Below are positions 9,809 through 48,433 of a DNA stretch of 50,297 nucleotides, one piece after another. The notes under the pieces are model-generated. The model saw nothing but the letters and a program-made list of their open reading frames with translations, had not been told where the DNA came from and did not search any database. The translations under genes and the position numbers were made by a program. The DNA is taken from positions 1 through 50,297 of the forward strand of contig JAJFUB010000011.1 of assembly GCA_021372615.1 (NCBI GenBank), given 5' to 3'. How positions within the stretch are numbered: the stretch's first letter is position 1; each line of letters starts with the position of its first letter. Origin of the DNA: a bacterium. Lineage in GTDB: Bacteria > Armatimonadota > Zipacnadia > Zipacnadales > UBA11051.

Positions 9809-9851
9809 GATGGTTGATCCTCTGGTATCGATGGGTAGTCACTGCGAGGCG

Positions 9852-9877
9852 CCGTCAGCCTGACCAGCGGCTGACGG
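9852..9877. repeat. Hairpin with shared TGACGGC word
   Basis: CCGTCAGCC and GGCTGACGG pair over 9 bp with an 8-base loop, upstream of the methyltransferase gene. The following GCTGACGGCCACG recurs at 20075-20087, and a related word follows the hairpin at 48464-48478. The element is therefore probably an interspersed repeat rather than a terminator. Confidence 0.5.
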
Positions 9878-9988
9878 CCACGAACGGTAAGGTTACAGCA
9901 AGCCAATCGTGGTGTCAACGCAGCGCGGGGGTGCCCTCCCCCTCGGAGCGACCCCCTCCTCCCCGCTGTCAGAGCCGCGGCCCCCCCG

Positions 9989-10017
9989 TTGCCCCCTCCT
10001 CCCCTCACTGGTATGAT
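9989..10017 (+). promoter_or_regulatory. Sigma70-type promoter for the DUF302 gene
   Basis: TTGCCC (9989-9994), a 17-base spacer and TATGAT (10012-10017) lie 20 bases before the ATG at 10038, and an AGGAGG site follows. It probably drives DUF302 and mscL together. Confidence 0.5.
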
Positions 10018-10037
10018 ACCGCCCACAGGAGGCGACT

Positions 10038-10421
10038 ATGCTCTACGAGAAGCAAGCTAGCGGTACTGCCGAAGACATCCTCGCGCGGCTGGCCGCCGCG
10101 GTGGCCGCGCACAAGTTCGGCGTCATCAGCCAACTCGACCTGCAGGCCAAGCTGGCTGAGAAGGGCGTGGACCTCGCGCCGGTCTGTTGGGTCGTGGAGG
10201 TGTGCAACCCGGTGCAGGCCCAGCGCGTGCTGGAGCAGGAGATCACGCTGGCGACGATGCTGCCCTGCCGCCTCTGTCTCTACGAGCGCGCGGGGGCGCT
10301 GTGGGTCGGCACGCTGCGGCCCAGCCAACTCATTGGCCTGATGGGCCAGCCGGCGCTGGCGCCGGTGGCGGCCGAAGTCGAAGCGACACTCATCGCAATC
10401 ATTGACCAGACATGCGCCTGA
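10038..10421 (+). CDS. DUF302 domain protein
   Basis: A 127-residue DUF302-family protein. [28 protein letters not shown] and later [29 protein letters not shown] match the family core. The biochemical role of DUF302 is unknown; members fold as small dimeric alpha/beta proteins. CAGGAGG lies 6 bases upstream of the ATG. Its downstream neighbour mscL begins 26 bases after the stop with an almost identical ribosome-binding leader (CACAGGAGGCGAC in both), suggesting a duplicated leader and a two-gene operon under the promoter at 9989-10017. Confidence 0.8.
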
Positions 10422-10447
10422 GCGGGCGCACCACAGGAGGCGACGGC

Positions 10448-10912
10448 ATGCTCAAGGAGTTCAAGGAGTTCGCCATCAAGGGCAACATGCTGGACATGGC
10501 CGTGGGCATCATCATCGGCGCGGCGTTCGGCAAGATCGTCACGTCGTTCGTCGAGGATGTCATCATGCCGCCCGTCGGGCTGCTGCTGGGCAAGGTGGAC
10601 TTCTCCGCGCTGTTCCTGAGCCTCAACGGGCAGAGCTACGCCTCGCTCGCCGCCGCCAAGCAAGCCGGCGCCCCCACACTCAACTACGGGGCATTCCTCA
10701 ACAACATCCTCAGCTTCATCATCGTCGCCTTCGCCGTGTTCCTGCTGGTCAAGGCCGTGAACCGGCTGCGGCGGCAGGGCGAGGCCGCCGCGGAGGAGGC
10801 CGAAGAGGCGACCGAGAAGACCTGTCCGTTCTGTCGGTCGCAGATCTCCATGGAGGCCACGCGCTGCCCGCAGTGCACCTCGATGCTGGAGGATGAGCCC
10901 GCTGCCCACTGA
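10448..10912 (+). CDS. mscL: Large-conductance mechanosensitive channel MscL
   Basis: A 154-residue inner-membrane channel that releases solutes on hypo-osmotic shock. The N-terminal amphipathic helix [20 protein letters not shown] leads into TM1 ([23 protein letters not shown]), a periplasmic loop and TM2 ([23 protein letters not shown]). The C-terminus has an unusual ending for MscL, a glutamate-rich helix then a zinc-ribbon-like pair [18 protein letters not shown]. The ATG at 10448 is chosen because AGGAGGCGACGGC precedes it; the frame is open from 10412. It follows the DUF302 gene as a second cistron. Confidence 0.93.
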
Positions 10913-10960
10913 CACGCCGGACCCGGGGGCAGCCCTAGCATCCGGGGCGGGTTCAGCGAT

Positions 10961-10988
10961 TTGCCTGGCCGGGCGATCGTGCTATACT
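10961..10988 (+). promoter_or_regulatory. Sigma70-type promoter for the first thymidylate-kinase-like gene
   Basis: TTGCCT (10961-10966), a 16-base spacer and TATACT (10983-10988). The same -10 hexamer TATACT is seen before dnaA and dciA. Transcription would begin about 35 bases before the ATG at 11031. Confidence 0.5.
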
Positions 10989-11030
10989 CGTAGGCCCTGA
11001 CCCATCATCTTGCACCGCGAGTTGAGGACC

Positions 11031-11702
11031 ATGCGACCCAGCAGTGACTTTCCGGGCAAGCTCTTCGTCGTGGAGGGGATTGACGGCTCGGGCAAGAGCA
11101 CGCAGATGCACTTGCTGGATACCTGGCTGCAATCCCAGGGCTACAGCACGTTCTTCTCCGAATGGAACTCGTCGGAGCTGGTGAAGAGCGCGACCAAGCG
11201 CGGCAAGGCGCGCCACCTGCTGACCCCGCTGACCTTCAGCCTCATCCACGCCACGGATTTCGCCGACCGCACCGAGCGCAACATCGTGCCGCCGCTGAAG
11301 GCGGGCGCGGTGGTGCTGGCCGACCGCTATGCCTACACGGCCTTCGCGCGCGACGGCGCGCGCGGGTGCCACCCCGACTGGGTGCGGGAGCTGTACTCGT
11401 TCTCGGTGCAGCCGACGGTGGCGCTGTACTTCAAGGTGCCGCTGGAGGTCGCGCTCAACCGCATTCTGGTCGGCCGGCCGGAGCTGAAGTTCTACGAGGC
11501 CGGCATGGACATGGGGTGGAGCGACGACGTCTACCAGTCCTTCCGCATCTTCCAGGGCAAGATCCTGGAGCAGTATGAGGGCATGGTGGACGAGTTCGGC
11601 CTGCACGTGATTGACGCGACGCTGCCGATCCCGGATCAGCAGGAGCTGGTGCGCGAGGTCGTCCGCCCGCACCTGAACGGCCTGCTGCGCAAGCCGGGCT
11701 AG
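11031..11702 (+). CDS. Thymidylate kinase-like P-loop kinase, copy 1
   Basis: A 223-residue dTMP-kinase-like protein. The P-loop is complete (EGIDGSGKST, residues 15-24), DRYAYT carries the DR motif that orients substrate, and the length fits bacterial Tmk (about 205-215 residues). If active it would phosphorylate dTMP to dTDP. The canonical LID region is weakly matched, with FYEAGMDMGWSDDVYQSFR where Tmk usually has RLR-type residues, so the substrate may differ. ATG at 11031 is preceded by GAGGA at short spacing; a TTG 21 bases upstream (11010) is possible. A paralogue with an altered P-loop follows at 11805-12611, about 100 bases downstream. Confidence 0.75.
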   Translation: MRPSSDFPGKLFVVEGIDGSGKSTQMHLLDTWLQSQGYSTFFSEWNSSELVKSATKRGKARHLLTPLTFSLIHATDFADRTERNIVPPLKAGAVVLADRYAYTAFARDGARGCHPDWVRELYSFSVQPTVALYFKVPLEVALNRILVGRPELKFYEAGMDMGWSDDVYQSFRIFQGKILEQYEGMVDEFGLHVIDATLPIPDQQELVREVVRPHLNGLLRKPG

Positions 11703-11708
11703 AGGCGA

Positions 11709-11771
11709 GGGGCCTGACCCCACAATCACCCGATCCACCCGGGGTCAGCCCCCTCCCGGGCCTGCGGCCCG
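11709..11771. repeat. Two adjacent hairpins between the kinase paralogues
   Basis: CTGACCCC (11714-11721) pairs with GGGGTCAG (11741-11748), with extra G/C pairs outside. CGGGCC-TGC-GGCCCG (11757-11771) forms a second hairpin. No T-run follows, so these look like intergenic repeats or an mRNA-processing structure rather than a terminator. Confidence 0.45.
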
Positions 11772-11804
11772 TCCGGGGACAGACCCCTGCGACAGGAGCC
11801 TCCT

Positions 11805-12611
11805 ATGCACATCAAGAGCTACTGGCATCCCTACCCTGGCCTGGCCGAGGACGAGGAGTACCCGGGGCGGCTCATCGTGCTGGAGGGCACGGATGGCGTC
11901 GGCCGCTCGACGCAGATCACGCTGCTCAAGCGCTGGCTGGAAAGCTCCGGCATCGCGGTGTATGACACCGGCCTGACGCGCTCGAACCTCGCCGGCCGGC
12001 ATCTGCGCGAGGCCCGCGAGGGGCATACGATGGGGCGCATGACGCAGGCCCTGTTCTACGCCACGGACTTCGCGGACCGGCTGGAGAACGAGATGGTCCC
12101 GGCCCTGCGCGCCGGCTATGTCGTGCTCACCGACCGCTATGTCTACTCGCTCATCGCCCGAGGGATCGTCCGCGGGCTGGACCCGGACTGGATGCGCCGG
12201 ATCTACGGCTTCGCCATCCAACCCTCGGCGGTGTACTACCTGAAGATCACAATCCCCGACCTCATCCCGCGTGTGCTGGCCAGCGGCGGCTTCGACTACT
12301 GGGAGTCGGGCGCCGACTACTCCGCCGGTGGCGACCTCTATGACTGCTTCGTCAAGCACCAGTCGGCGCTGCTGGAGCAGTTCGAACAGATGGCCGACGA
12401 GTTCGGCTTCGTCAGCGTGGATGCCTCGGCCTCGATAGACCAGACCTTCCAGACGCTGCAGCAGCGCCTGAGCGAGATGATGCAGGATGCCTCGCTCAAG
12501 CCCGGCATGGCCACGCCGCTGCTACCGCCCCCGGCGGGGCGCCGGCCGTCAAGCGACCGCGTGGCCGAGGTGCTGCGGGAGTTCCTGGCGTCGCTGGAGG
12601 GCGAGGGCTAG
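11805..12611 (+). CDS. Thymidylate kinase-like protein, copy 2, with altered P-loop
   Basis: A 268-residue paralogue of the preceding gene. The P-loop reads EGTDGVGRST (residues 27-36), with Arg34 where the Walker A lysine is expected. Other blocks are kept: ALFYATDFADRLENEMVPALRAG and DRYVYSLIARG align with copy 1 (HATDFADRTERNIVPPLKAG and DRYAYTAFARD). The Lys-to-Arg change usually weakens or abolishes catalysis, so this copy may be regulatory, a nucleotide sensor, or a partner of copy 1. An extra C-terminal tail of about 50 residues (PPPAGRRPSSDRVAEVLREF) is absent from copy 1. A GGAG ribosome-binding site precedes the ATG. Confidence 0.75.
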   Translation: MHIKSYWHPYPGLAEDEEYPGRLIVLEGTDGVGRSTQITLLKRWLESSGIAVYDTGLTRSNLAGRHLREAREGHTMGRMTQALFYATDFADRLENEMVPALRAGYVVLTDRYVYSLIARGIVRGLDPDWMRRIYGFAIQPSAVYYLKITIPDLIPRVLASGGFDYWESGADYSAGGDLYDCFVKHQSALLEQFEQMADEFGFVSVDASASIDQTFQTLQQRLSEMMQDASLKPGMATPLLPPPAGRRPSSDRVAEVLREFLASLEGEG

Positions 12612-12649
12612 ACACCGCGACACCGACCACTGCCACGGGGGGTGATGAC

Positions 12650-13696
12650 GTGGACACAAGCATGGACGTGCCGGACGAGGCGTACGGGCAGTGGCTGGTG
12701 CAACTCAAGACGCGAATTCAGGGCGCCCAGCTACGGGCGGCCCAGTCGGTCAACTCCGAGCTAGTGCTGCTGTACTGGTCCATCGGCCGGGATATCCTCG
12801 AGCGCCAGCGTGAGCACGGTTGGGGGGCCCGGGTCATAGACCGCCTGTCGGCGGATCTGCGCCGCGAGTTCCCGGACCTCAAAGGGTTCTCCGTCCGCAA
12901 TCTCAAGTACATGCGCGCCTTTGCCGAGGCCTGGCCAGAGGAGGCAATTGTGCAACAGCTTGTTGCACAACTGCCCTGGGGGCACAACGTGCGTATCCTG
13001 GACGGCACGAGCGGAGTCGAGGAGCGCCTCTGGTACGTCAAGGCCGCCCTCACCCATGGTTGGTCGCGCAACATGCTGGTGCACCAGATTGAGAGTGGGC
13101 TGCACCTGCGGCAGGGCCAGGCCGTCACGAACTTCGCCCAGACGCTGCCGGCGCCACAGTCCGACCTGGCGCGAGAGATCCTCAAGGATCCCTACAACTT
13201 CGACTTCCTGACGATGTCCGACCAGGCACAGGAACGCGACCTGGAGCACGCGCTACTGGCGCAACTGCGTGATGCCCTGCTCGAGTTCGGCGGTGGCTTC
13301 GCCTTCGTGGGCAGTCAGTACCCCCTGGAAGTCGGCGGGGAGGACTTCTTCCTCGATCTACTGTTCTACCACCTACGGCTACGGTGCTTTGTGGTCGTTG
13401 ATCTCAAGGTCGGCAAGTTCAGGCCTGAGCACGCCGGCAAGATGAACTTCTACCTGTCCGCGGTGGACGATCTGCTCCGCCATCCGTCGGACCAGCCCTC
13501 GATCGGTCTGATCCTGTGCAAGACCAGGAACGGGGTCGTGGCGGAGTACGCGCTGCGCGACATGCGTAAGCCCGTGGGTGTGGCGAACTACCGGCTGGGG
13601 AAGGCCCTGCCCGACGCTCTGCAGGCGGCCCTGCCGTCGGTTCAGTATCTCCAGACGGAGTTGCAGCTAGCCGATGACGACGACAGCCAGTCCTGA
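12650..13696 (+). CDS. DUF1016 / YhcG-family PD-(D/E)XK nuclease
   Basis: A 348-residue protein that matches the whole DUF1016 (YhcG) family. The N-terminal winged-helix-like domain has LYWSIGRDILERQREHGWG and FSVRNLKYMRAF, the middle has LVAQLPWGHN and ALTHGWSRNMLVHQIE, and the C-terminal nuclease has GGEDFFLDLLFYH and FVVVDLKVGKF. The Asp and Asp-x-Lys residues of the PD-(D/E)XK site are present. Family members occur in defence islands and with type I restriction systems; the target is not established. Here it stands alone, and its last 23 bases overlap the next gene. GTG at 12650 has GGGGGGTGAT upstream; an ATG at 12662 is the alternative start. Confidence 0.88.
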   Translation: MDTSMDVPDEAYGQWLVQLKTRIQGAQLRAAQSVNSELVLLYWSIGRDILERQREHGWGARVIDRLSADLRREFPDLKGFSVRNLKYMRAFAEAWPEEAIVQQLVAQLPWGHNVRILDGTSGVEERLWYVKAALTHGWSRNMLVHQIESGLHLRQGQAVTNFAQTLPAPQSDLAREILKDPYNFDFLTMSDQAQERDLEHALLAQLRDALLEFGGGFAFVGSQYPLEVGGEDFFLDLLFYHLRLRCFVVVDLKVGKFRPEHAGKMNFYLSAVDDLLRHPSDQPSIGLILCKTRNGVVAEYALRDMRKPVGVANYRLGKALPDALQAALPSVQYLQTELQLADDDDSQS

Positions 13697-14795
13697 GCGC
13701 CCCGCCCGCACTATCAGCCAAGCCGCCGTCCTCGGCGCCGGGGGTGGGGGGAGAGCTTCTGCTTACATGCTCGCCGCCCATGGCCTGGCCGTCCGCCTGT
13801 GGGAAGCCCCGCAGTTCGCCGCTAACCTCACCGATCTGCAGGCGGGCACTCTCCGCCAGGATGCCGAGCCCGGCGGCGAGGTGGCCCTGCAACTCACCAC
13901 TACCGACCTCCCCACCGCCATCGCCGGCGCAGACCTCGTCGTGTCCTGTGTGCAGCGCGGCTCGCACCGCCTCATCGGCGAGCAGCTGGCCGACTGCCTG
14001 ACCGATGAGCAGATGCTGCTGCTGAACCCCGGCAGCCTCGGTGGGGCCCTGGAGATTGCTGCCCTCTTCCGGTCGCGCGGCCGGGCGTGTCCGCGGATCG
14101 CCGAGACGGGCACGTTGGCCCACTGCGCCCGGCCGGTCCCCGGCGGCGTGCGCACGACGCTGACTGTCCGCCATGTCTTCTGCGCCGCCCTGCCGGCCGC
14201 GCATACGGCGGCGATGTTGGAGGCCCTGCGGCCGTACTACCCGTATCTCGTGCCGGCGCAGTCTGTGCTGGAGACCGGCCTCTACAATGGCAACCCCGTG
14301 CTGCACCCGGCCATCGCCCTGCTCAACGCGGGGGCCCTGGAGCGCAATGACGGGACCTTTCGCTTCTACGGCGATGGCATGACGCCGGCGGTGGCGCGGC
14401 TGATCGAGGCCGTGGACGGCGAGCGCCAGAGGCTGGCCGCCGCCTACGGCCTGAAGCTGATCCCCGAGCCCACGCTGTCGGTCATGCAGGGCTATGCCGA
14501 CCACGAGGATTACCTGCGCTGCTACCGCGACAGCGCCATCTTTGCCCCCCTCGTCGCCCCGAACACACTGGACCACCGCTACTTCCACGAGGATGTCGGC
14601 GAGGGCCTCATCACCTGGCTGGCGCTGGCCGAGGTGGCAGGAGTGCGGCTGCCGCTCGTGGAAGCGATGGTGACGGTGGCGGAGACGATCACCGGCCAGG
14701 ACTACCGGAGCGGCCAGGCGGAGCGGCTGGCGCGGTTGGGGCTGGGCGGCCTGGACCGGGCGGGGATACTCGAATACGTGCTTAGCGGGGCATGA
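13674..14795 (+). CDS. Octopine/nopaline (opine) dehydrogenase-family protein
   Basis: A 373-residue protein with an N-terminal Rossmann fold (AVLGAGGGGRASAYMLAAHG, residues about 18-37) and the C-terminal NAD/NADP octopine/nopaline dehydrogenase domain (NGNPVLHPAIALLNAG, with the conserved His, then YFHEDVGEGLITWLALA). Enzymes of this family reductively join an amino acid with a 2-oxo acid, or act on related metabolites such as opine metallophores; the substrate cannot be told. The start overlaps the YhcG gene by 23 bases in another frame, which implies coupled translation although the functions look unrelated. A large AGGAT inverted repeat begins four bases after its stop. Confidence 0.82.
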   Translation: MTTTASPERPARTISQAAVLGAGGGGRASAYMLAAHGLAVRLWEAPQFAANLTDLQAGTLRQDAEPGGEVALQLTTTDLPTAIAGADLVVSCVQRGSHRLIGEQLADCLTDEQMLLLNPGSLGGALEIAALFRSRGRACPRIAETGTLAHCARPVPGGVRTTLTVRHVFCAALPAAHTAAMLEALRPYYPYLVPAQSVLETGLYNGNPVLHPAIALLNAGALERNDGTFRFYGDGMTPAVARLIEAVDGERQRLAAAYGLKLIPEPTLSVMQGYADHEDYLRCYRDSAIFAPLVAPNTLDHRYFHEDVGEGLITWLALAEVAGVRLPLVEAMVTVAETITGQDYRSGQAERLARLGLGGLDRAGILEYVLSGA

Positions 14796-40041: not shown

Positions 40042-40944
40042 TCAGACTTCTTCCCCAGGCGTGGTCAGCGTCGTCAGGAGCCGCTCCAGGTCATTCTGGT
40101 CGTAGTAGCGGATGTGTATGACGCCGCCACGCTTCGCGCCGGGACGGATGACCACTTTGGCGGCCAGCGCCGTCCGGAGACGCTGCTCGGCGGCAGCCAC
40201 ATGAGGATCGCGCGCCACATCGCGCTGGTCTGCAGAGTCTGCCTTAACCGCCGTCGCGGCAGGCCGCACTGCAGTCTCCTCCACAGGCGAGATCTTCTCA
40301 CGCACCAGGCGCTCGGTCTCCCGGACGCTGAGCCCCTCCTCGCGCACGACCTTCACGATCTCCTCGTAGCCTTCGTGCCCCACCAGCGGCAGTAGGGCCC
40401 GTCCGTGGCCCTCTGAGAGTGTGCCCGCGCGGATGTCCTCCTGCACCTCCTGTGGTAGCTCGAGGATCCGCATCGTGTTGGCCACAGCCGAACGGCTCTT
40501 GCCGATCTTCTTGGCCACGTCGTCCTGTGTGAGCCCGAAATCGGATACCAGCATGCGATAGCCACGGGCGGCATCAATGGCGTTCAGGTCGTCACGCTGC
40601 AGGTTCTCGATCATGGCGAGCTCGAGCGCCTGGGCATCGTCTGCGGTCTGCACCAGACAAGGGATCGTGTGCAGGCCGGCACGTCGGGCGGCGCGCCAGC
40701 GGCGCTCACCCGCCACCAGTTGGTATCCAGCGCCCACGGAGCGCACGATGACGGGCTGTAGCACCCCGTGCGTCTCAATGGAGAGCGTCAGTTCTTCGAG
40801 GGAACTGTCGTCTATTGCCTGGCGCGGTTGGAGCGGATTGGGCTCGATGTCGTCGAGGGCGACCTCAATCACGGCACGGCTCTGCGCCAGCGTATCCCCG
40901 GAGAGAAGATCACTTAGTCCCCTGCCGAGACCTTTCCTACGCAT
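40042..40944 (-). CDS. parB: Chromosome partitioning protein ParB
   Basis: A 300-residue ParB. RRKGLGRGLSDLL at the N-terminus is the ParA-stimulating motif. ALDDIEPNPLQPR and GERRWRAARRAGL form the ParB/Srx CTPase domain with its GERRxRA motif. IENLQRDDLN and GKSRSAVANTMRILELP give the helix-turn-helix that reads parS. The C-terminal dimerisation segment includes IHIRYYDQNDLERLL. It binds the parS site at 42397-42412 and spreads as a CTP clamp. Its start overlaps the end of parA by eight bases. Confidence 0.96.
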   Translation of the reverse strand: MRRKGLGRGLSDLLSGDTLAQSRAVIEVALDDIEPNPLQPRQAIDDSSLEELTLSIETHGVLQPVIVRSVGAGYQLVAGERRWRAARRAGLHTIPCLVQTADDAQALELAMIENLQRDDLNAIDAARGYRMLVSDFGLTQDDVAKKIGKSRSAVANTMRILELPQEVQEDIRAGTLSEGHGRALLPLVGHEGYEEIVKVVREEGLSVRETERLVREKISPVEETAVRPAATAVKADSADQRDVARDPHVAAAEQRLRTALAAKVVIRPGAKRGGVIHIRYYDQNDLERLLTTLTTPGEEV

Positions 40945-41716
40945 TGCCGAAGACCTCCTTGTAGAGCATCCAGTAGCGTTTGGCGCCGACGCTGTGTGGA
41001 TCGTAGAGAACCGCCGGCATACGATGGCCCGGGGCCTCGGCTAGCCGGATATTGCGGGGGATCACCGTCTCGTACACACGCCCGCGGAAGGTGCTGCGGA
41101 CGTCCTCCGCCACCTCCATCGAGAGGTTGGTGCGGGAGTCGTACATCGTGAGCACCATGCCGGCGATCTGGAGGGCGGGGTTGATCTGGGTCTGTACCAG
41201 GTTGATGACCTTCATGAGCTGCGAGAGGCCCTCAAGGGCATAGTACTCACACTGGATGGGGATCAGTGCCTTCTGTGCGGCGGCGAGGGCGTTCACCGTG
41301 AGGATGCCGAGAGAGGGAGCAGTGTCAATGATGATGATGTCATAGGAGGCGCGTACGGGCTCCAGGGCGTGCCTGAGGCGCGTGTCGCGAGCAATGGCGC
41401 TCGCGAGGGTCATGTCGGCTCCGGCGAGGTTGATCGTGGCCGGGACGACGTCCAGACCCTCCACACACGTCGCCACCGTGACATCCTTGAGGCTCGTGGG
41501 CTGTCCTCCGCCGATATCCGAAGTGAGGACATCGTAGAGACAGTGCTGGAGAGCACGCCGATCCACACCGAGTCCGCTGGTGGCGTTGCCCTGGGGGTCG
41601 GCATCAACTAGAAGGACGCGCTTGCCGTCGGTGGCCGCCCAGGCCGCGACGTTGACAGCCGTCGTGGTCTTGCCGACGCCACCCTTCTGGTTGATGATGG
41701 CGTAGATATCCTGCAT
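40937..41716 (-). CDS. parA: Chromosome partitioning ATPase ParA/Soj
   Basis: A 259-residue ParA. The deviant Walker A reads NQKGGVGKTTTAVNVA at residues 8-23, Walker A' is LLVDADPQGNATSGLG, and DIIIIDTAPSLGILTVNAL is the Walker B region. The length and motifs are those of chromosomal Soj proteins that segregate origins with ParB. I chose the ATG at 41716 because GGGGAGG lies upstream; the frame continues to 41773, overlapping rsmG. Gene order rsmG-parA-parB is the conserved near-origin arrangement, here about 15 kb from dnaA. Confidence 0.96.
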   Translation of the reverse strand: MQDIYAIINQKGGVGKTTTAVNVAAWAATDGKRVLLVDADPQGNATSGLGVDRRALQHCLYDVLTSDIGGGQPTSLKDVTVATCVEGLDVVPATINLAGADMTLASAIARDTRLRHALEPVRASYDIIIIDTAPSLGILTVNALAAAQKALIPIQCEYYALEGLSQLMKVINLVQTQINPALQIAGMVLTMYDSRTNLSMEVAEDVRSTFRGRVYETVIPRNIRLAEAPGHRMPAVLYDPHSVGAKRYWMLYKEVFGNA

Positions 41717-41765
41717 ACGGGGGCCTCCCCACGACGGCCTGGATCGCGGCGCCGAAGGCGCCGGG

Positions 41766-42446
41766 TCAGACACGCTGGTATAGGGTCAGCACCAGGGACG
41801 GTACGTCAGTACGGTCCGTCCGCAGTGCATTCAAACCGTCGGGGGTAGGACACGCGCCCGGTTGACGCCATAGCGCGACTGTGCCACCAGGTCTAGCCCA
41901 GTCGGCAGAGGAGGCTAGGGAGGGCTCGGCCGGGCCAAAGGCACGGATCAGAACCGTGCCGAATCGCCCCTGCATGGCCTCTGGCGGCCTGTGTAGGTCC
42001 ACAAGCAACGATGTGCAGTTGCTCAGACCATGGCGCCGAATGGCGATATCCAGGAATTGTACCACACGCTGTCGCCGGTCCGCAAGCACAACTTCGAGTT
42101 CTGGCCACATGCAGCCCAGTGAAAGGCCTACAGCGCCGCATCCAGCGCCGAAATCGAGCGCAGGAGAGCTCAGGTGGGGACGCAGTGAGGGCGACAGTAG
42201 TTGGATGGCGGGAGCGACCAGGTTCTGTGCCAGGGAGAGGGGGTCGGCGTACTTGGTGAGTCCTATGTGATGCGAAGCCGGTGCCAGCCAGGACAAGAGC
42301 GAGGTGAGCGCGCCGAGGCGATCAGGAGCAACGCACAGCGCCAGGCGCTGCCGTAGGTCCGTCAGATAGCGGGCCAGACCGACCTGTTCGGTGGACTGTT
42401 TCACGTGAAACACCGGCAGGGGAGGGTGCGCAGATGCCCACAGCAT
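41766..42446 (-). CDS. rsmG: 16S rRNA (G527-N7) methyltransferase RsmG, divergent
   Basis: About 226 residues. VFHVKQSTEQVGLARYL at the N-terminus and LTKYADPLSLAQNLVAP match the RsmG start and its HxxDS-like region. LDFGAGCGAVGLSLGCMWPELEVVLADRRQRVVQFL is the S-adenosylmethionine site, where the usual GxGxGFPG is altered. The GG turn in DWARPGGTVALWRQPG replaces the common KG ending. RsmG methylates G527 of 16S rRNA. Position next to parA supports the call despite divergence. The start is uncertain: ATG at 42446, TTG at 42470 or GTG at 42413. The parS site lies in the 5' end of the coding region. Confidence 0.8.
   Translation of the reverse strand: MLWASAHPPLPVFHVKQSTEQVGLARYLTDLRQRLALCVAPDRLGALTSLLSWLAPASHHIGLTKYADPLSLAQNLVAPAIQLLSPSLRPHLSSPALDFGAGCGAVGLSLGCMWPELEVVLADRRQRVVQFLDIAIRRHGLSNCTSLLVDLHRPPEAMQGRFGTVLIRAFGPAEPSLASSADWARPGGTVALWRQPGACPTPDGLNALRTDRTDVPSLVLTLYQRV
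42397..42412. promoter_or_regulatory. parS: parS centromere site
   Basis: TGTTTCACGTGAAACA is a perfect 16-bp match to the bacterial parS consensus. It lies within the first codons of rsmG and encodes part of FHVKQ. It is the only copy in this window. ParB encoded at 40042-40944 should bind it. Confidence 0.95.
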
Positions 42447-42478
42447 AGCGCTCAGATGGCGCGAATGCAAGGAGTTCT

Positions 42479-43483
42479 TCAGTTCTGGGCAGATGAGGGG
42501 GGAATCATCGGGCTGACCGTGCGGAGGATCTGGTCGGCCGAGGTATTCGTGGGGTCATCCACAACGGCAGCCTGCGCCTCGCTCTGGGCTACTTGCAGCC
42601 AGGCCATAGCATTCTCGAGTGCGTCAGCCTGCATCGCGGCGGCGGCGCGGATATACGCCGTCAGGGCGAGACTGGCGTGCGCAAACGCCCGCAGGCGAGC
42701 CGGGGTGCGGATGCGCTGGTCCATGAGTTGCTTCCCGGGGGGCAGCCTCCGGCCGATCTCAATGGTCTTGCGGAACCACTCGTCGGCGAGGTCCAGTTCG
42801 CGCGTCTGACCGTTCTCTGCACGCGTCACCAGGTCCTGGATTGACTGCATGAGGGCCGGGTCGCCAATGCTCAGGTAGGTCGTACCCATCGAGAAGGCGG
42901 CCAGACCCATATCCGGGTCGAGTTCTAGCGCCTTCTGGTAGTGCTGGCGCGCGTCATCGAAGCTCGCATGGAGCTGGGCCTGCAGACCGAGCCGATATTC
43001 GCGCTTGGCGCGCTGCGCCGGTTGCATGTAGATGGCGATGGGTATCGCCGCGGCAAGCGCCAGCAGCAACACCGACCCGATCAGACCACCGACGAAGCAA
43101 CCTCGGTGAGAACGGGCGGGTGGAAGCTCCTCTTCGAGCGGCTCAGGAGCGTGTGAGGGCATACCGGGAGCGGTGGACGGCAATGGAGCTGTCCCGAGGC
43201 GCGCGCAGCGCGGGCAATGCGTCTCCAAGGGACGCAATGCATAGCCGCATCGCGGGCAGACGCCCGAGGAGAGCATGGGCAGATCTCCCGCGGAGTTGTC
43301 GTCCGATGGTGGTGCGTTCTGCGGCTTGTCCGCTTTGGCAGGCGGGATGCCTGCAGATGGAGGAGGGGACAGCGGGCCACTTGGCTCGAACTCAATCTCC
43401 AGCACACTGTCGGAGGACGCCGGCCGCTCTCCGCCGTCGTCATCAAAGCTGATGTCCAGCACATCGTCGTGGTCGTCTCTCAT
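42479..43483 (-). CDS. Membrane-anchored zinc-ribbon/TPR protein of the ubiquitin-like operon
   Basis: A 334-residue protein. The acidic N-terminus holds two similar motifs, DDVLDISFDDD (residues 5-15) and DSVLEIEFEPS (25-35). A zinc ribbon follows (CPRCGYALRPLETHCPRC, about 76-93). One transmembrane helix (FVGGLIGSVLLLALAAAIPIAI, about 130-151) separates it from TPR-like helices (REYRLGLQAQLHASFDDARQ, HYQKALELDPDMGLAAFSMG). By the one-helix topology the zinc ribbon is probably cytoplasmic and the TPR part external. It is the last gene of the operon, 50 bases after the second JAMM gene, and may be a scaffold or substrate-recruiting factor; an E3-like role is only a guess. Start ATG at 43483 has a weak ribosome-binding site, and a possible internal promoter lies at 43507-43535. 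Confidence 0.7.
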   Translation of the reverse strand: MRDDHDDVLDISFDDDGGERPASSDSVLEIEFEPSGPLSPPPSAGIPPAKADKPQNAPPSDDNSAGDLPMLSSGVCPRCGYALRPLETHCPRCARLGTAPLPSTAPGMPSHAPEPLEEELPPARSHRGCFVGGLIGSVLLLALAAAIPIAIYMQPAQRAKREYRLGLQAQLHASFDDARQHYQKALELDPDMGLAAFSMGTTYLSIGDPALMQSIQDLVTRAENGQTRELDLADEWFRKTIEIGRRLPPGKQLMDQRIRTPARLRAFAHASLALTAYIRAAAAMQADALENAMAWLQVAQSEAQAAVVDDPTNTSADQILRTVSPMIPPSSAQN

Positions 43484-43506
43484 CGCAGGACCATAGGAGG
43501 CATCTT

Positions 43507-43535
43507 TGTATATGTTTAACGTTTTATCTTGTACT
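43507..43535 (-). promoter_or_regulatory. Possible internal promoter before the zinc-ribbon/TPR gene
   Basis: On the minus strand a conspicuously AT-rich stretch contains AGTACA, 17 bases and TATACA (43507-43512), ending 23 bases before the start codon at 43483. The -35 match is weak (3 of 6). Confidence 0.35.
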
Positions 43536-44211
43536 AACGACGGAACCAGGACAGCAGACCCTTCCTTGGATCGCGCCGTTCAGGTGCGTACTTCATGTCG
43601 GCAAGGAGCACAGTCAGTTCCTCCGCCCGCTCCGCATCATCGTATAGCAGGCAACCCGGCAGGCGCTCGAGCGTGCCCTCGCGCCAGGCGAAGACTGCGA
43701 GCAGTTGCTGGACAGGATCCAATACAAGCGCAACATGACGCGGGTGGGAGAAGAAGTTCTCGTGGATGAACCGGTCGTGGGCGGACAGGAAGGGCCCAAA
43801 CCCGGGGTGGGTGTGGTACCACCCCACGATGCAGAGGCCGTCGTCGCGCTTGTCGAGGGCGGCATGGATGCGGTCCCAGGCATCGTGGGTGAAGGTCACA
43901 TGGGTCAGGCTGGACTCGTTGCTGTCGGCGATGACGATGTCCGCCACCCGCGTCATGGGTCCGCGGGGCGTCTGGACGAAGTCGCCCAGCAGAACGCCGG
44001 CCACCTCACGGTCGGTACAGTCACTGCCGTGCCCGATCATGTCATAGAGCGTATCGGCCGCAAAGGCGGCGAGCGGCGAGGGCGGGGACTCCCCCAGCAG
44101 CGCCACGCGGACGCTCTCATCATGCCAGGGATCCCAGTCGCGCAACGTCTCCTGGTCGCTGGAGAGCTCCAGCATCAGATCGTCGTCGCCGGGAGGATCC
44201 GTGGCGTTCAC
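43534..44211 (-). CDS. JAMM/MPN metalloprotease (JAB domain), soluble
   Basis: A 225-residue JAB/MPN protein. The complete JAMM site is present: Glu69 in REVAGVLLGD, His133 and His135 in YHTHPGFGPFLSAHD, Ser143 and Asp146. Such zinc proteases cleave isopeptide bonds in ubiquitin-like systems, or process the modifier precursor. No membrane segment is seen. The N-terminus carries DDDLMLELSSDQ, similar to motifs in other products of this operon. It starts with GTG overlapping the TGA of the previous JAMM gene, so the two are translationally coupled. A paralogue with a membrane anchor is encoded just upstream. Confidence 0.88.
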   Translation of the reverse strand: MNATDPPGDDDLMLELSSDQETLRDWDPWHDESVRVALLGESPPSPLAAFAADTLYDMIGHGSDCTDREVAGVLLGDFVQTPRGPMTRVADIVIADSNESSLTHVTFTHDAWDRIHAALDKRDDGLCIVGWYHTHPGFGPFLSAHDRFIHENFFSHPRHVALVLDPVQQLLAVFAWREGTLERLPGCLLYDDAERAEELTVLLADMKYAPERRDPRKGLLSWFRR

Positions 44212-45146
44212 GGTGACGGCGCTCCCGGGGTAGTTGGTGGGGGCTCTGACGCCGCCGGCGGGGGAGAAGGCCCGGACGGCCCCGACTGTGGAGCCGCCTC
44301 CGGAGCAGGCGAAGGAGAGGAGGCCTCATGCCCCTGCTCGGCCTGTGACAGGTCGAGGACGCGGTCGCGGATGGCGGTCAACTCATGCGACATCCCGCTG
44401 ACCTGCTCGTTGAGGCCAGCAACCTGTCCCTTGAGCACCCGCACGTCGTTGTAGGTGGCGAGGGACACGCCGATCAGAAGCGCCAGCAGGAGACCGATGA
44501 GGCCCAGGGCCCAGGTGATGCCGCGGGTCGGCACGTCTGGCGCCGGCGCAGGGATGATGATCGGTGCCGGCTGGGGCGCGGGCGCAGCCGAGGCGCTCTG
44601 CGGCGCGCCCGCTGCGGCCCACTGGACGGCCACGGTATGCACGTCAGGCTCCTGCGACAGCTCCTGGCCGTGCCAGGTGAAGCAGCCCCAGGACTTGGCG
44701 AGTGGATCGGCCACGACCGCCACCTGCCAGGGGGTGTTGAAGAAGTTCTGGTGGATGAACAGGTCATGCCCCGAGAGGAACAGCCCGAACCCGGGATGAC
44801 TGTGGTACCAGCCTACGATCTTCAGGTCGGGGTACTCGTTGTCCTTGACGGCGTTGATCTCATTCCAGGTCTCGTGGGTGAAGGTGACACTACCGCGAGA
44901 GTGCGCCATGGCGTGACCACGGATAGCGGCCTCGACCAGCACGACTGGCCGCGGGCCATCTATCACCGAGCCCACGAGGATGCCGCCGATCTCATGCTCC
45001 GGCTCCTCGGCGGCGTGGCTGTTCACATCAGCCAGGGCTGTCTCGAGCACGAAGACGGCCGGTCCGGTGCTAGACTGCTGCACATCTTTGTCAGAGTCTT
45101 GAGCCTCAAGTTGTACATCCGTATCCAGGACGTCGGGATCGTCCAT
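44208..45146 (-). CDS. JAMM/MPN metalloprotease with membrane anchor
   Basis: A 312-residue protein. The JAMM site is complete: Glu52 in HEIGGILVGS, His115 and His117 in YHSHPGFGLFLSGHD, Ser125 and Asp128. A proline/alanine-rich linker is followed by a transmembrane helix (TWALGLIGLLLALLIGVSLA, about 208-228). A short coiled coil comes next (VRVLKGQVAGLNEQVSGMSH and on) and then a Pro-rich tail. The N-terminus has DPDVLDTDVQLEAQDSD, an acidic/hydrophobic motif shared with neighbours. It probably removes the ubiquitin-like modifier at the membrane surface. Its ATG overlaps the TGA of the E1-like gene (TGATG). Confidence 0.88.
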   Translation of the reverse strand: MDDPDVLDTDVQLEAQDSDKDVQQSSTGPAVFVLETALADVNSHAAEEPEHEIGGILVGSVIDGPRPVVLVEAAIRGHAMAHSRGSVTFTHETWNEINAVKDNEYPDLKIVGWYHSHPGFGLFLSGHDLFIHQNFFNTPWQVAVVADPLAKSWGCFTWHGQELSQEPDVHTVAVQWAAAGAPQSASAAPAPQPAPIIIPAPAPDVPTRGITWALGLIGLLLALLIGVSLATYNDVRVLKGQVAGLNEQVSGMSHELTAIRDRVLDLSQAEQGHEASSPSPAPEAAPQSGPSGPSPPPAASEPPPTTPGAPSP

Positions 45147-46339
45147 CAGGCAATGCTCCCCAGCGCCAGCTCACGGTCGGCGCGCAGCAAGTAGTACTTC
45201 ATGGTCATTCCCTCGCGGCCGGTGATGATGTCGTAAGGTGGCAAGCCCAGCTCAGCAAGGGTGCGGTCGAGGTAGTCCTCACTGCCGTCCAGCTTGTGCG
45301 TCAGTAGCGGGTCGCAGACTTCGCCGCAGTCCGGGCACGTCGCCTCGGCAATGGTGACCTTGCCCAACGAGCGGAAGAAGTCGCGGGTATGGTCACACTT
45401 GGGGCAGTGCAGCCGGGTGCACAGCTCGCGCTCGAACTCGACCTGGGCGTGCGGCCCCACCTCGGCACGGACGAGGTCGAGCATCTGACGGCCAGTCACG
45501 TCGCCGACCCCGTAGTCAGTGTCGACGACATCGTACATCTGTTCGTGTGCGGGGCAGTCGTCGCGGCGCTGATAGGTGATGAGGTATGAATCGTGGGTCA
45601 GACCGTTGAAGAAGAAACCGCGCCCGGCGAGGTCAGGCAGGTTGCGGTCGGCGTGGAGGAGCTTGATGCCCTCTTGCACCTGGATGCCGCCGATGATCGA
45701 GGCAATCGTGGGAGTCGTGGGCACCTTGCCCTGCAGCACATCATCGCGCGAGAGCAGAGCGCAGGAGCGCCGCTGGCTGAGCAGCTTGTAGTCCAACTCG
45801 GACATGGTGCACTCGTAGCACGGAGCCTCCTCGCCGGGGACGAACACCCGGGCGACCCCCTGCATCAGCTCAATCGCCCCGTCAATCCACGGGCGTCCGA
45901 GCTTCCAGCAGTTCGCGTTGATGGCGACGCGCGCTTCGCGGTTGTCCAGCGCGCCGAAGACCAGGTCCATCTCGCGGAAGGCGCCGAGGCCGAGGTCGTA
46001 GTTGATATCGCCCACCAGCGCTTGGGCGCGGACATCGGGGTTGACTTCCATGACGCGCTCGGCGGCGACCTCGGCCTTGTGGCGGCCGCGGTCACCGGCG
46101 CGGAAGAGGATGGCGCGGGTGAGGTTCGTGTCCTCGATGGTGTCGAGATCGGCGATGAGGATACGGCCGACGCCGAGGAGGGCGAGGTTCTTAAGGATCT
46201 CGTTGCCGAGGGCTCCGGCCCCGACGACCAACACACGCGCCTGGCGCAGGCGCTCCTGATCCCACCACGGGATCAGCCGCAGCCGATCATAGCGGTCTTC
46301 AGCCAGCTCGACCTGCAGTTCGTCCTGTTGCTCGGGCAC
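45146..46339 (-). CDS. E1-like ubiquitin-activating (ThiF/UBA) enzyme
   Basis: A 397-residue E1/ThiF-fold adenylyltransferase. VVGAGALGNEILKNL (residues 38-52) binds ATP, ADLDTIEDTNLTR (63-75) has the metal and arginine residues for adenylation, and Cys193 in RSCALLSRDD occupies the position of the thioester or persulfide Cys. PTTPTIASIIGGIQVQEGIKLL is the usual C-terminal helix. Beyond it are two extra CxxC pairs, CPKC (312-315) and CPDC (335-338), plus CYEC at 174-177. The ending LAELGLPPYDIITGREG resembles E1-like C-terminal domains. It should adenylate the Gly terminus of the modifier encoded just upstream and pass it to the E2-like protein. GTG at 46339 has GAGGAG seven bases upstream. 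The N-terminus carries DELQVELAED. Confidence 0.9.
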   Translation of the reverse strand: MPEQQDELQVELAEDRYDRLRLIPWWDQERLRQARVLVVGAGALGNEILKNLALLGVGRILIADLDTIEDTNLTRAILFRAGDRGRHKAEVAAERVMEVNPDVRAQALVGDINYDLGLGAFREMDLVFGALDNREARVAINANCWKLGRPWIDGAIELMQGVARVFVPGEEAPCYECTMSELDYKLLSQRRSCALLSRDDVLQGKVPTTPTIASIIGGIQVQEGIKLLHADRNLPDLAGRGFFFNGLTHDSYLITYQRRDDCPAHEQMYDVVDTDYGVGDVTGRQMLDLVRAEVGPHAQVEFERELCTRLHCPKCDHTRDFFRSLGKVTIAEATCPDCGEVCDPLLTHKLDGSEDYLDRTLAELGLPPYDIITGREGMTMKYYLLRADRELALGSIA

Positions 46340-46377
46340 AGGCGGTCTCCTCGGGGAGGGATGGCAGCGGCGGGCTG

Positions 46378-46647
46378 TCAGCCGGCAGTGATCTCCGGCT
46401 GCAGGCGGAGGACGTCGCCATCCTTCACTTCGGCTTCGGCCAGCGTCTGCTCGTCGGTGAGCTGCTTGCCGGAGGCCTTGTGGTGGAACTTGTAGCTGAG
46501 CGGCTGACCGTCGGGGCCCGTCACGGGCAGGGCCATCATCTGCACGAGCTTGGCGATGATCCGGCGCACCGGCGCATCGTCAGGCAGCGAGGCCTTCTGC
46601 TCCTTGCTGCCGGTGGTGTCCATGATGACCACATTCACCTTACCCAT
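46378..46647 (-). CDS. Ubiquitin-like modifier protein
   Basis: An 89-residue beta-grasp protein. VNVVIMDTTGSKEQKASLPD gives the first beta hairpin, VRRIIAKLVQMMALP the helix, SYKFHHKASGKQLTDEQTLA the middle strands, and EVKDGDVLRLQPEITAG the last strand with a single Gly at the C-terminus (Ala88-Gly89). The fold resembles YukD/EsaB and ubiquitin. A free terminal Gly suits direct E1 activation without trimming. The ATG at 46647 has GGGAGG six bases upstream; the frame continues to 46698. Genes for the E1 and for the protease and E2 flank it on both sides, which supports the role of transferable modifier. Confidence 0.85.
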   Translation of the reverse strand: MGKVNVVIMDTTGSKEQKASLPDDAPVRRIIAKLVQMMALPVTGPDGQPLSYKFHHKASGKQLTDEQTLAEAEVKDGDVLRLQPEITAG

Positions 46648-46711
46648 GTCTGCCTCCCTGTGTAGACCTGTATAGGCTTTCTCGCTAATCTGTGACAAAT
46701 GTGTACCGTAC

Positions 46712-47746
46712 TCAGCGCAACTCTATGTCAATGTCGCTAAGGTCATCCTGCGGTCTCGGCTGCGGCTGGGGGACGGGCGCGGGCGCTGCAGAAGGCGCAG
46801 ACGGGACCGGAGCGGCGCCCCAACCGGGAGCCGAGTATGGCGGCGGTGCCATGTAGGCGACCGGGGCGACGACCCCACGTGCTACCGACTTAGCGACCAC
46901 AAGCGAGGTGATCAGCGCAACCAGAAAGGCTACCACGGCTGCCGCCACCAACCACATCCATGGCTGCAGCGTGAACGAGGGTGCGGGTGGCGAGGCAGCC
47001 GGGGGAGCCCCGGGCGCGCCGGCCTCGGGTACCGCCGCTGCTGGCGGAGGCGTCGCGCCCTCGGCAGGTGCTTCGGCCGCCGCCGGCGCATCGAGTGTCG
47101 AATAAGTTAGCTTTGCCTCATCTAGAAAGGCCATCGCATCATCACTAGGGATGGCGAAGCCCATGTTCTCGGCCTTCTTGGCGACCAGCGTCGCCACCCC
47201 GACGACCTGCCCCTGATCGTTGATGATCGGGCCCCCGGAATTGCCCTGGTTGAGCGCCGCGTCTATCTGGACGAACTTCTGGCCGTCAATGTCGCGGCTG
47301 GCCGAGGAGACGATGCCCTTGGTCAGCGTGTCGGACAGGCCGAAGGGCGCGCCGATGGCCGCGACTTCCGTTCCCTGCTTGAGCTTGGCGGAGGAGGCGA
47401 AGATCACGTTTGGCAGATGCGGGCGGTCCACGCGCAGCACGACCAGGTCGCGCGTCTCGGAGGCCTTCACCAGCTCGGCCGGCAGCTCGTCCCCGTTGGC
47501 GAGCTTGACCGTGGCCTTGGTGGCCTTATCCAGCACGTGCTTGTTGGTGAGCACATAGCCCTCGCCGTTGACGATGAAGCCGGTGCCCATGCGCTTCTCC
47601 AGCATCACGGTGACGACAGCATCGCGGATCTTGTCGGCGGCCTGCGCGAAGTCCGCGTGGGCCAGGGGGCAGGCGCACAGCAGCGTCAACAGCACCACCA
47701 CCGGCAGCAGCGGGCGCGCGCCTGGGGACCATCGGCGTCCGGACAT
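46712..47746 (-). CDS. Membrane-anchored HtrA/trypsin-like serine protease
   Basis: A 344-residue protein. Residues 1-31 are a signal peptide. The trypsin-like domain has the triad His70 (LTNKHVL), Asp100 (TRDLVVL) and Ser170 (LNQGNSGGP), as in HtrA/DegP, but no PDZ domain follows. A Pro/Ala-rich linker leads to a transmembrane helix (LVAAAVVAFLVALITSLVVA, about 251-270). A second Pro-rich segment comes next and the C-terminus is DDLSDIDIELR, which would be cytoplasmic. The protease therefore faces outside while its tail could contact the cytoplasmic modifier machinery. The ATG at 47746 has GAGGG upstream. It lies 27 bases after the E2-like gene and 64 before the modifier gene in the same operon. 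Confidence 0.85.
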   Translation of the reverse strand: MSGRRWSPGARPLLPVVVLLTLLCACPLAHADFAQAADKIRDAVVTVMLEKRMGTGFIVNGEGYVLTNKHVLDKATKATVKLANGDELPAELVKASETRDLVVLRVDRPHLPNVIFASSAKLKQGTEVAAIGAPFGLSDTLTKGIVSSASRDIDGQKFVQIDAALNQGNSGGPIINDQGQVVGVATLVAKKAENMGFAIPSDDAMAFLDEAKLTYSTLDAPAAAEAPAEGATPPPAAAVPEAGAPGAPPAASPPAPSFTLQPWMWLVAAAVVAFLVALITSLVVAKSVARGVVAPVAYMAPPPYSAPGWGAAPVPSAPSAAPAPVPQPQPRPQDDLSDIDIELR

Positions 47747-47773: not shown

Positions 47774-48274
47774 TCATGCCACATATACGGCCAACGGGCG
47801 GTCATCCACCGGCAGGGCCGAGGCATGGGCTTCGGCCCACGCCGCCGCCTCCGGGTTGAGCACGTCGTCGGGGTTGTACAACCGGAACTGGATCATCTCA
47901 CCGACGCGCAACACGAGGTCGGCCAGCGACTCCGAGGGCGTCCAGCCACCGATGCACACGCCGCCCCCGTCGCTGGCGGACAGGATATTCGGGTGAAAGA
48001 TCAGGGTGCGCCAGATGATCTGCGGCGGCCGCCGCGGGTAGTCGCGGTGCAGGTAGAACTCGCCCTGGTGGCGATCAGCCAGACCGGGCTCGGCCGCCCC
48101 CGGCGCCCAGACCAACCCGCGACAGGTGTAGGTGACAAGATAGCGGTCGGGCGGGTTGCCTTCGGCGTCACAGGTGATGAAGTCGGAGGCGCGAACGAGT
48201 TCGCGCATGGCCGCCATGTCGGCATGCAGCCGCCGCAGCCGCGGACTGGAGGAGGCTGGTTCGTGAGCGATCAT
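47774..48274 (-). CDS. E2-like ubiquitin-conjugating (UBC-fold) enzyme
   Basis: A 166-residue protein with the E2 fold. SPRLRRLHADMAAMRELV is helix 1, PPDRYLVTYTCRGLVW and HQGEFYLHRDYPRRPPQI give the sheet, and FHPNILSASDGGGVCIGGW contains the HPN motif (94-96) and the candidate catalytic Cys107, 11 residues later. LADLVLRVGEMI and LNPEAAAWA match E2 helices at the C-terminal side. It would accept the modifier from the E1-like protein as a thioester and attach it to a target. It is the first gene of the operon. I use the ATG at 48274, although TTG at 48289 is in frame. The 315 bases upstream contain only repeats. Confidence 0.87.
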   Translation of the reverse strand: MIAHEPASSSPRLRRLHADMAAMRELVRASDFITCDAEGNPPDRYLVTYTCRGLVWAPGAAEPGLADRHQGEFYLHRDYPRRPPQIIWRTLIFHPNILSASDGGGVCIGGWTPSESLADLVLRVGEMIQFRLYNPDDVLNPEAAAWAEAHASALPVDDRPLAVYVA

Positions 48275-48433
48275 AGCCAAGTAAGCCAACGTCGGCAGTA
48301 GAGGGAGAGTTCCACATGAAGACAGGGGACACCTGCCGGCGGCGTGGGGGAGGAGGCGTGCATGCGCGTGAGCACCGGTGTGTGTCTCCCCTCCGGGGCT
48401 CTGGCCACAAGGGGAGAGGGGGCGCCGTGGTCC

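What the first reader, a model, noticed from the sequence alone, without database searches (positions are those of the whole stretch)
42479..47746. Shared acidic/hydrophobic short motif in five proteins of the conjugation operon
A motif of the form Asp-rich, then alternating hydrophobics, recurs near protein ends: DDVLDISFDDD and DSVLEIEFEPS (zinc-ribbon/TPR), DDDLMLELSSD (JAMM 2), DPDVLDTDVQLE (JAMM 1), DELQVELAED (E1) and DDLSDIDIELR (protease C-terminus). It resembles SUMO-interacting motifs (short hydrophobic strand flanked by acids). In each protein it lies on the side predicted to be cytoplasmic, and it is absent from the modifier itself. I propose it as a docking motif for the modifier, like eukaryotic SIMs.
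Basis: partly seen in the sequence, partly recalled or inferred. Interest (0 to 1): 0.72.

Follow-up and report, generated by a model that had tools for sequence, protein, structure and literature searches.

The report
Shared docking motif in bacterial ubiquitin-like system
Nearly every enzyme of a bacterial ubiquitin-like tagging system carries the same short acidic-and-hydrophobic peptide on a floppy end, which looks like a built-in docking tag of the kind known from eukaryotic SUMO and UFM1 enzymes; what it docks to is still unproven.

Summary
It recurs in orthologous operons of Armatimonadota and Firmicutes on proteins of unrelated folds: HtrA-like protease C-terminus (18 of 18), a second E2 C-terminus (20 of 22), JAMM and E1 N-termini, plus FHA, RING-linker, TPR and M48 proteins. 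The modifier never carries it (0 of 23). A profile trained only on protease and E2 C-termini recognises JAMM and E1 N-termini (AUC 0.93 and 0.91). In the window the protease copy is far outside background; E1, TPR and JAMM2 lie at about 0.5-1.2% of background; JAMM1 alone is not significant (8%). This genome's second E2 lies on another contig and still carries two copies. That the motif binds the modifier is inferred: in minimal four-gene operons the modifier is the only component without it, and modifiers lacking a helix-1 Lys/Arg accompany operons lacking the motif (0 of 7 loci against 33 of 39; confounded by clade). Two AlphaFold runs on tethered chains showed no docking. Closest analogues: eukaryotic UFIM and SIM.

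The parts
46715..46747 (-). motif copy at the extreme C-terminus of the HtrA-like membrane protease (DDLSDIDIELR-COOH)
   Evidence: conserved in 18 of 18 orthologues, last ten residues 80% vs 31% for the 35 before (n=19); 25.8 bits vs background maximum -0.7
46295..46324 (-). motif copy at the N-terminus of E1 (DELQVELAED), directly before the conserved DRYxRLRLIPWWDQ start of the enzyme
   Evidence: 9.1 bits, 0.46% of background
45105..45140 (-). weak motif copy at the N-terminus of JAMM1 (DPDVLDTDVQLE)
   Evidence: 2.5 bits, 8.3% of background; JAMM orthologues as a class carry it (24 of 47 above the 99th percentile)
44155..44187 (-). motif copy at the N-terminus of JAMM2 (DDDLMLELSSD)
   Evidence: 6.8 bits, 1.2% of background
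43436..43468 (-). first motif copy at the N-terminus of the Zn-ribbon/TM/TPR protein (DDVLDISFDDD)
   Evidence: by reading, orthologue L071 also has two copies
43379..43411 (-). second motif copy of the Zn-ribbon/TM/TPR protein (DSVLEIEFEPS)
   Evidence: 9.1 bits, 0.46% of background
46378..46698 (-). YukD-family ubiquitin-like modifier, proposed receptor; no motif; likely true start ATG at 46647; ends ...PEITAG
45146..46339 (-). E1-like ThiF-family activating enzyme
   Evidence: Pfam ThiF 5e-53
44208..45146 (-). JAMM1 metallopeptidase with one TM
   Evidence: Pfam JAB 3.5e-09; TM 213-231
43534..44211 (-). JAMM2 metallopeptidase
   Evidence: Pfam JAB 3.2e-11
42479..43483 (-). Zn-ribbon/TM/TPR protein
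   Evidence: Pfam TPR_1 3.9e-05, below its cut-off; TM 133-151
46712..47746 (-). HtrA/DegS-like trypsin-type protease with signal segment and C-terminal TM anchor
   Evidence: Pfam Trypsin_2 9.8e-33; NCBIfam DegP/HtrA subfamily 1.4e-52, below its cut-off
47774..48289 (-). E2-like enzyme a (UQ_con); no motif
   Evidence: 0 of 6 orthologues with terminal motif

Best explanation
The peptide is a true short linear docking motif of one bacterial ubiquitin-like conjugation system. Consensus (shown): one to three acids, then three hydrophobics on alternate positions with mostly acidic or polar residues between, e.g. D-[DE]-[LIV]-[DEG]-[IVL]-[DETQ]-[LF], on N-termini, C-termini or linkers. It sits on E1, second E2, JAMM peptidases, RING, FHA, TPR and membrane-anchored protease, but not on the modifier. 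Inferred mechanism: the motif is disordered alone and adds as an extra beta-strand to the beta2/alpha1 groove of the modifier, its acids facing the basic helix 1, so that all enzymes and membrane adaptors can hold free, charged or conjugated modifier. This would pass the modifier along E1, E2, RING and JAMM, and recruit conjugates to the cytosolic tail of the periplasm-facing protease. The step 'conserved system-wide motif' is shown; 'receptor is the modifier' and 'beta-strand addition' are inferred.
For: Terminal motif (regex) in protease 18 of 18, second E2 20 of 22, E1 12 of 26, JAMM 14 of 47, modifier 0 of 23, first E2 0 of 6, TPR 0 of 2, against 6 of 682 genes of the own genome. Of the ten hits among 195 'other' genes of those loci, nine are by reading or Pfam further system proteins and one (L034) has no Pfam match. 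Cross-class profile: JAMM 24 of 47 and E1 6 of 24 above the background 99th percentile, AUC 0.927 and 0.912; UBL AUC 0.27. Acid-matched N-termini (8 or more D/E in 40): 23 of 47 against 0 of 50. Tail conservation: protease last ten 0.80 vs 0.31, second E2 last seven 0.68 vs 0.28. The unlinked second E2 of the same genome has two copies. Minimal operons L057/L058. UBL helix-1 Lys/Arg in 39 loci, 33 with motif; 7 loci with Val/Asn, none with motif. The modifier model matches ubiquitin/SUMO folds, several from SIM complexes. Precedents read in passages: UBA5 UIS (PMC5428781), UFBP1 UFIM on UFM1 beta2 (PMC10937380), C53 sAIM (PMC10183829), SIM at the SAE2 C-terminus (PMC12687455).
Against: AlphaFold2 on a protease-tail+UBL chain left the tail near pLDDT 50 without a strand; on a tail+UBL+E1 chain neither the protease tail nor the E1 motif docked. 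The chains were artificial, and a UIS fused to UFM1 also bound only in trans in its crystal (PMC5428781 passage), so this is weak, but it is negative. The UBL helix/motif association rests on about two motif-less clades. In E1 the composition shuffle is modest (6 of 24 at p<=0.05). JAMM1 of the window is not significant. Many system proteins miss the threshold (23 of 47 JAMM, 18 of 24 E1).
Confidence: 0.6

Rival explanations
1. The motif is a real docking motif, but its receptor is another hub, such as the E1, E2 or JAMM domain or an unlinked scaffold, so that it builds an enzyme complex rather than reads the modifier.
For: AlphaFold runs showed no UBL docking; components of one genome can be unlinked, so an unseen hub is possible; the motif sits directly beside the E1 fold.
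Against: In the four-gene operons L057/L058 every component except the modifier bears the motif by reading; a hub that also bears it would have to bind itself. The modifier is the best-conserved protein of the set and never has it.
Confidence: 0.25
2. The motif is a degradation or processing tag read by a protease or AAA+ unfoldase, most clearly at the exact C-termini of protease and second E2.
For: In the 19 protease and 25 second-E2 tails the last hydrophobic lies one residue before the carboxylate, as position-fixed C-terminal tags do.
Against: In E1, JAMM, FHA, TPR and RING proteins it is N-terminal or internal; acids are unusual for bacterial C-degrons (recalled, no call).
Confidence: 0.07
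3. Chance resemblance between acidic disordered tails.
For: The tails are acid-rich; JAMM1 of the window alone is at 8% of background.
Against: Acid-matched controls 0 of 50 against 23 of 47 and the position-specific conservation across phyla.
Confidence: 0.03
4. Each copy is an intramolecular strand or autoinhibitory lid on its own enzyme.
For: Strand-like alternation; adjacency to the E1 domain.
Against: The same sequence on about eight unrelated folds; the E1 motif region is unpaired at pLDDT about 40 in the chain that holds E1.
Confidence: 0.05

Closest known systems
UFM1-interacting motif (UFIM/UIS/LIR) of UBA5, UFBP1 and C53/CDK5RAP3
   Same: Short motif outside the catalytic domain, on the E1 and on further components of one UBL cascade, several copies in some; reads the modifier at beta2/alpha1 (passages of PMC5428781, PMC10937380, PMC10183829). 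The human UBA5 core WGIEL(V) (recalled, no call) resembles bacterial DLGIELL.
   Different: No aromatic anchor here in Armatimonadota; motif on far more components including peptidases and an HtrA-like protease; no homology shown; binding not measured.
SUMO-interacting motif (SIM)
   Same: Short hydrophobic strand next to acids, disordered until bound, on E1, E3 and effectors (passages of PMC12751080, PMC12687455).
   Different: SIM cores hold about three hydrophobics in four adjacent residues; here they alternate strictly in the protease tail; the modifier is a YukD-family protein, not SUMO.
Predicted prokaryotic UBL systems with E1, E2, JAB and RING (Iyer, Burroughs, Aravind)
   Same: The system holds a YukD-type UBL, ThiF-type E1, E2, JAMM and Prok-RING_1 proteins (passages of PMC1779556, PMC7159879).
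   Different: The passages read mention no shared motif in the tails; the 2011 and 2012 papers on RING systems cited there were not looked up by id.
Bil and Bub anti-phage conjugation systems
   Same: Complete E1-E2-UBL-protease sets in bacteria (review passages PMC11354881, PMC12687455).
   Different: BilA has two UBL domains, here one; only a weak BilD match (9.9e-06); primary papers not held.

Membership tests
SUMO-interacting motif | four-residue core with at least three hydrophobics | tested here: not met
   protease tails such as DLSDIDITLH hold at most two V/I/L in any four (read from the tails); some E2 tails (IELL) and the first TPR copy (VLDI) meet it
SUMO-interacting motif | flanking acidic stretch | tested here: met
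SUMO-interacting motif | non-covalent binding to the beta2/alpha1 groove of the modifier | tested here: inconclusive
   no docking in two artificial single-chain AlphaFold2 models; no binding data
UFM1-interacting motif | on the E1 outside its adenylation fold | tested here: met
   E1 N-terminus, residues 6-15, ahead of the ThiF match at 22-263
UFM1-interacting motif | aromatic anchor residue | tested here: not met
   no Trp in the tails listed; Phe at the first hydrophobic in Firmicutes only
UFM1-interacting motif | same kind of motif on other components of the cascade | tested here: met
prokaryotic UBL/E1/E2/JAB/RING system | all five component types in one genome | tested here: met
   (RING and second E2 on contig C171)
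Bil/Bub system | Bil- or Bub-type proteins and operon | tested here: inconclusive
   PADLOC: among nine proteins a weak BilD match for E1 only; no Bub-named match was listed

The most novel reading that the evidence does not exclude
Bacteria have their own modifier-reader code: a YukD-type ubiquitin-like protein recognised through one SIM/UFIM-like strand motif that is displayed by nearly every other component of its cascade, soluble and membrane-bound, and that arose independently of (or before) the eukaryotic SIM and UFIM. The motif could then be used as a bait to find unlinked substrates and effectors.
Probability: 0.5. Interest if true: 0.85.

Novelty: new variant of a known kind. Interest (0 to 1): 0.75.

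Why it matters
Bacterial ubiquitin-like systems are known mostly as catalytic parts; how their components find the modifier is open. A strand motif shared by E1, E2, RING, JAMM and a membrane protease would give them a reader code like those of SUMO and UFM1, would explain how a periplasm-facing protease is tied to a cytosolic tagging system, and gives a sequence handle for finding unlinked members, as the second E2 of this genome illustrates. It is directly testable with a 12-residue peptide and a 90-residue protein.

Tried and rejected
Chance acidic tails: rejected by acid-matched and shuffled controls. A strict regex misses true-looking copies (in one search it missed JAMM2, JAMM1 and the second TPR copy), so a profile was used. 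A Trp-anchored UFIM and a canonical SIM core were looked for by reading the tails and not found as rules. No solved structure of this family was among the listed matches of E1, UBL or E2b. Fold search placed the E1 with ThiF/MoeB and the modifier with archaeal ubiquitin and SUMO. Literature: searches showed, in the rows listed (titles and starts of abstracts), no report of such a motif in a bacterial system; primary Bil/Bub papers are not held, so priority is not established.
Full report
Setting. The region is an operon on the minus strand: E2a (47774-48289), an HtrA-like protease with signal segment and C-terminal membrane anchor (46712-47746), a YukD-family ubiquitin-like protein (UBL, 46378-46698), a ThiF-type E1 (45146-46339), two JAMM peptidases (44208-45146 and 43534-44211) and a Zn-ribbon/TM/TPR protein (42479-43483), followed by a GidB/RsmG-like methyltransferase and ParA/ParB-like genes (named by reading, no call). 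Relatives found by E1 include records named 'Candidatus Zipacnadia' and Armatimonadetes. E1 relatives at E<=1e-30 occur in 29 of 101 genomes searched, own genome included, and in 39 loci of genome contigs.

Observation. I then asked whether orthologues keep them. Loci were searched with the seven window proteins and their termini read. Protease orthologues end in (E/D)DLSD(I/V)DI(T/D)L-x-COOH. A second E2 (E2b), not in the window, ends in DD(L/I)(D/E/G)IEL-x-COOH. E1 starts with LDIDLEEDRYHR-like sequence. JAMM proteins start with peptides such as SSEELEVELV.

Counts with a fixed regex in the first 45 or last 25 residues (27 loci, nearly all of Armatimonadota, plus six E2b loci): protease 18 of 18, E2b 20 of 22 (the two tails that differ by eye are those of L087), E1 12 of 26, JAMM 14 of 47, TPR 0 of 2, UBL 0 of 23, E2a 0 of 6, other genes 10 of 195. 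Of those ten, five are E2b and one a JAMM-like gene that the labelling had not covered, three are FHA-type proteins (Pfam FHA for two of them, the third by reading) and one (L034) has no Pfam match. Background: 6 of 682 genes called in 1,004,920 bases of the own genome (with a slightly narrower N-terminal limit of 40). Gene calls come from a simple caller of my own, so starts are approximate.

Profile test. An eight-column profile was built only from 38 protease and E2b C-termini (L087 left out, window left out) and run on the first 60 residues of other classes, proteins cut at a contig start dropped. JAMM: 24 of 47 above the 99th percentile of 654 background N-termini, AUC 0.927, Fisher 1.6e-25. 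E1: 6 of 24, AUC 0.912, Fisher 1.5e-06. TPR: 1 of 2. UBL: 0 of 23, AUC 0.27. E2a: 0 of 6. Orthologues are related to each other, so these p-values overstate independence. Shuffling the first 40 residues gave p<=0.05 for 30 of 47 JAMM and 6 of 24 E1. In the window: protease 25.8 bits (background maximum -0.7 over 647 C-termini), E1 and TPR 9.1, JAMM2 6.8, JAMM1 2.5.

Among background N-termini with at least 8 acids in 40 residues, 0 of 50 pass; E1 plus JAMM with the same acidity 23 of 47 (Fisher 1.4e-09); with at least 6 acids 1 of 157 against 29 of 62. Acidic C-termini of the background pass, anywhere in the last 30 residues, in 5 of 142 (at least 5 acids in 25). Trained on one tail class and tested on the other, median scores (12.1 and 12.8) exceed the 99th percentile of the best score anywhere in background tails (6.6 and 8.2), though few exceed the background maximum (1 of 20 and 6 of 18).

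Conservation within tails. Protease (19 with the window): mean identity 0.80 in the last ten residues, 0.31 in the 35 before. E2b (25): 0.68 in the last seven, 0.28 before. The last hydrophobic is always one residue from the carboxylate.

Breadth. In Firmicutes other than Gelria/Syntrophomonas the protease tail holds RTDF(D/E)I(D/E)I in 11 of 11 loci that show a protease, and most JAMM N-termini with a good score read F(D/E)I(D/E)(I/L). Gelria/Syntrophomonas loci carry the motif on protease and E2b, more weakly or in part on E1 and JAMM, and L056 has it at the C-terminus of an M48 peptidase. FHA-type proteins (including L034, which has no Pfam match) pass the threshold in 4 of 9 checked; RING-type proteins (Pfam Prok-RING_1 for the three scanned, the rest by reading) have it in a linker in 3 of 9 checked. 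Acidobacterial loci have none above threshold in 6, planctomycete-named loci none in 2.

A further member. Searching the own genome with E2b found it on another contig, C171. It ends PEIDLDIELHDFGAEPEDDLDIQLG, two copies, near a Prok-RING_1 gene. The motif follows the system, not the locus.

Receptor. In L057 and L058 only UBL, E1, E2 and JAMM of the system lie side by side; by reading, E1, E2 and JAMM bear the motif (E1 of both and JAMM of L058 score below the threshold); the UBL does not. The UBL is the best-conserved component against the window (83-89% in many loci where E1 is 60-66%). At one helix-1 position 39 loci have Lys/Arg and 33 of these have at least one partner above threshold (four of the six without were scored on a single partner); 7 loci have Val or Asn and none passes; the acidobacterial UBLs also have Pro in the beta2 stretch. 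This fits a beta2/alpha1 groove but is confounded with clade.

Structure. AlphaFold2 with alignment A1 (protease tail, stop read as Gly, UBL; L035) gave a good UBL and a tail at pLDDT about 50 without strand. Alignment A2 (tail+UBL+E1; L073) again left the protease tail and the E1 motif undocked; in the tail only residues 25-29, the motif core, escape the segments below 50. I count these as negative but weak: the linker was short in the first, the alignment gives little signal in tails, and a UIS fused N-terminally to UFM1 bound only a neighbouring molecule in its crystal (passage of PMC5428781). Foldseek matches the UBL model to archaeal ubiquitin and SUMO1, several from SIM complexes, and the E1 to ThiF/MoeB.

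Comparison. From passages read: UBA5 holds UFM1 by a short sequence outside its adenylation domain, Kd about 8 uM (PMC5428781); UFBP1 has the same kind of motif on UFM1 beta2, 2.2 uM (PMC10937380); C53 has several (PMC10183829); SAE2 has a SIM at its extreme C-terminus (PMC12687455); SIM definition from PMC12751080. The bacterial motif works like these if the inference holds, but it is not shown to be a member: no aromatic anchor, different hydrophobic spacing, no measured binding.

Verdict. A genuine, system-wide short linear motif (about 0.95 in my judgement); receptor most likely the modifier (0.6).

Noticed in passing
own genome contig C171, locus L153:9911-12019: Second, unlinked locus of the same system: E2b with two motif copies, a small membrane (DUF4190/CD225-like, below cut-off) protein and a Prok-RING_1 protein.
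   Followed up: yes
L056:4498-5331: M48 peptidase inside a Syntrophomonas operon ends in SSSELEIELK, the motif at its exact C-terminus.
   Followed up: partly
L172:4380-8945 and 9109-13776: An E2b-like match lies near the end of a 1522-aa open frame (stretch with unknown bases), next to a 1556-aa protein that starts like STAND/DUF4062 proteins (recalled resemblance); possible defence locus.
   Followed up: no
L084:4832-5971: A gene that reads like an AAA-type ATPase sits between E1 and JAMM, interrupting the operon.
   Followed up: no
window 46378-46698: The UBL ends in a single Gly (PEITAG); some orthologues have extra residues after it (L033, L037, L079), so processing may be needed only in some.
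   Followed up: partly
window 40042-42470: The operon lies beside an RsmG-like gene and ParA/ParB-like genes; ParA/ParB-like genes also follow it in L071, so it may be near the replication origin.
   Followed up: no
L060, L068, L087 E2 C-termini: Planctomycete-like systems end their E2 in a different acidic-hydrophobic form (PDVLYIG, PDILFLD, DDDLLVIE), perhaps a diverged version of the motif.
   Followed up: no
L040 and L056 E2a C-termini: In these two loci E2a, otherwise without motif, ends in DDEIIIL or NDEIIIS, closer to a classical SIM.
   Followed up: no
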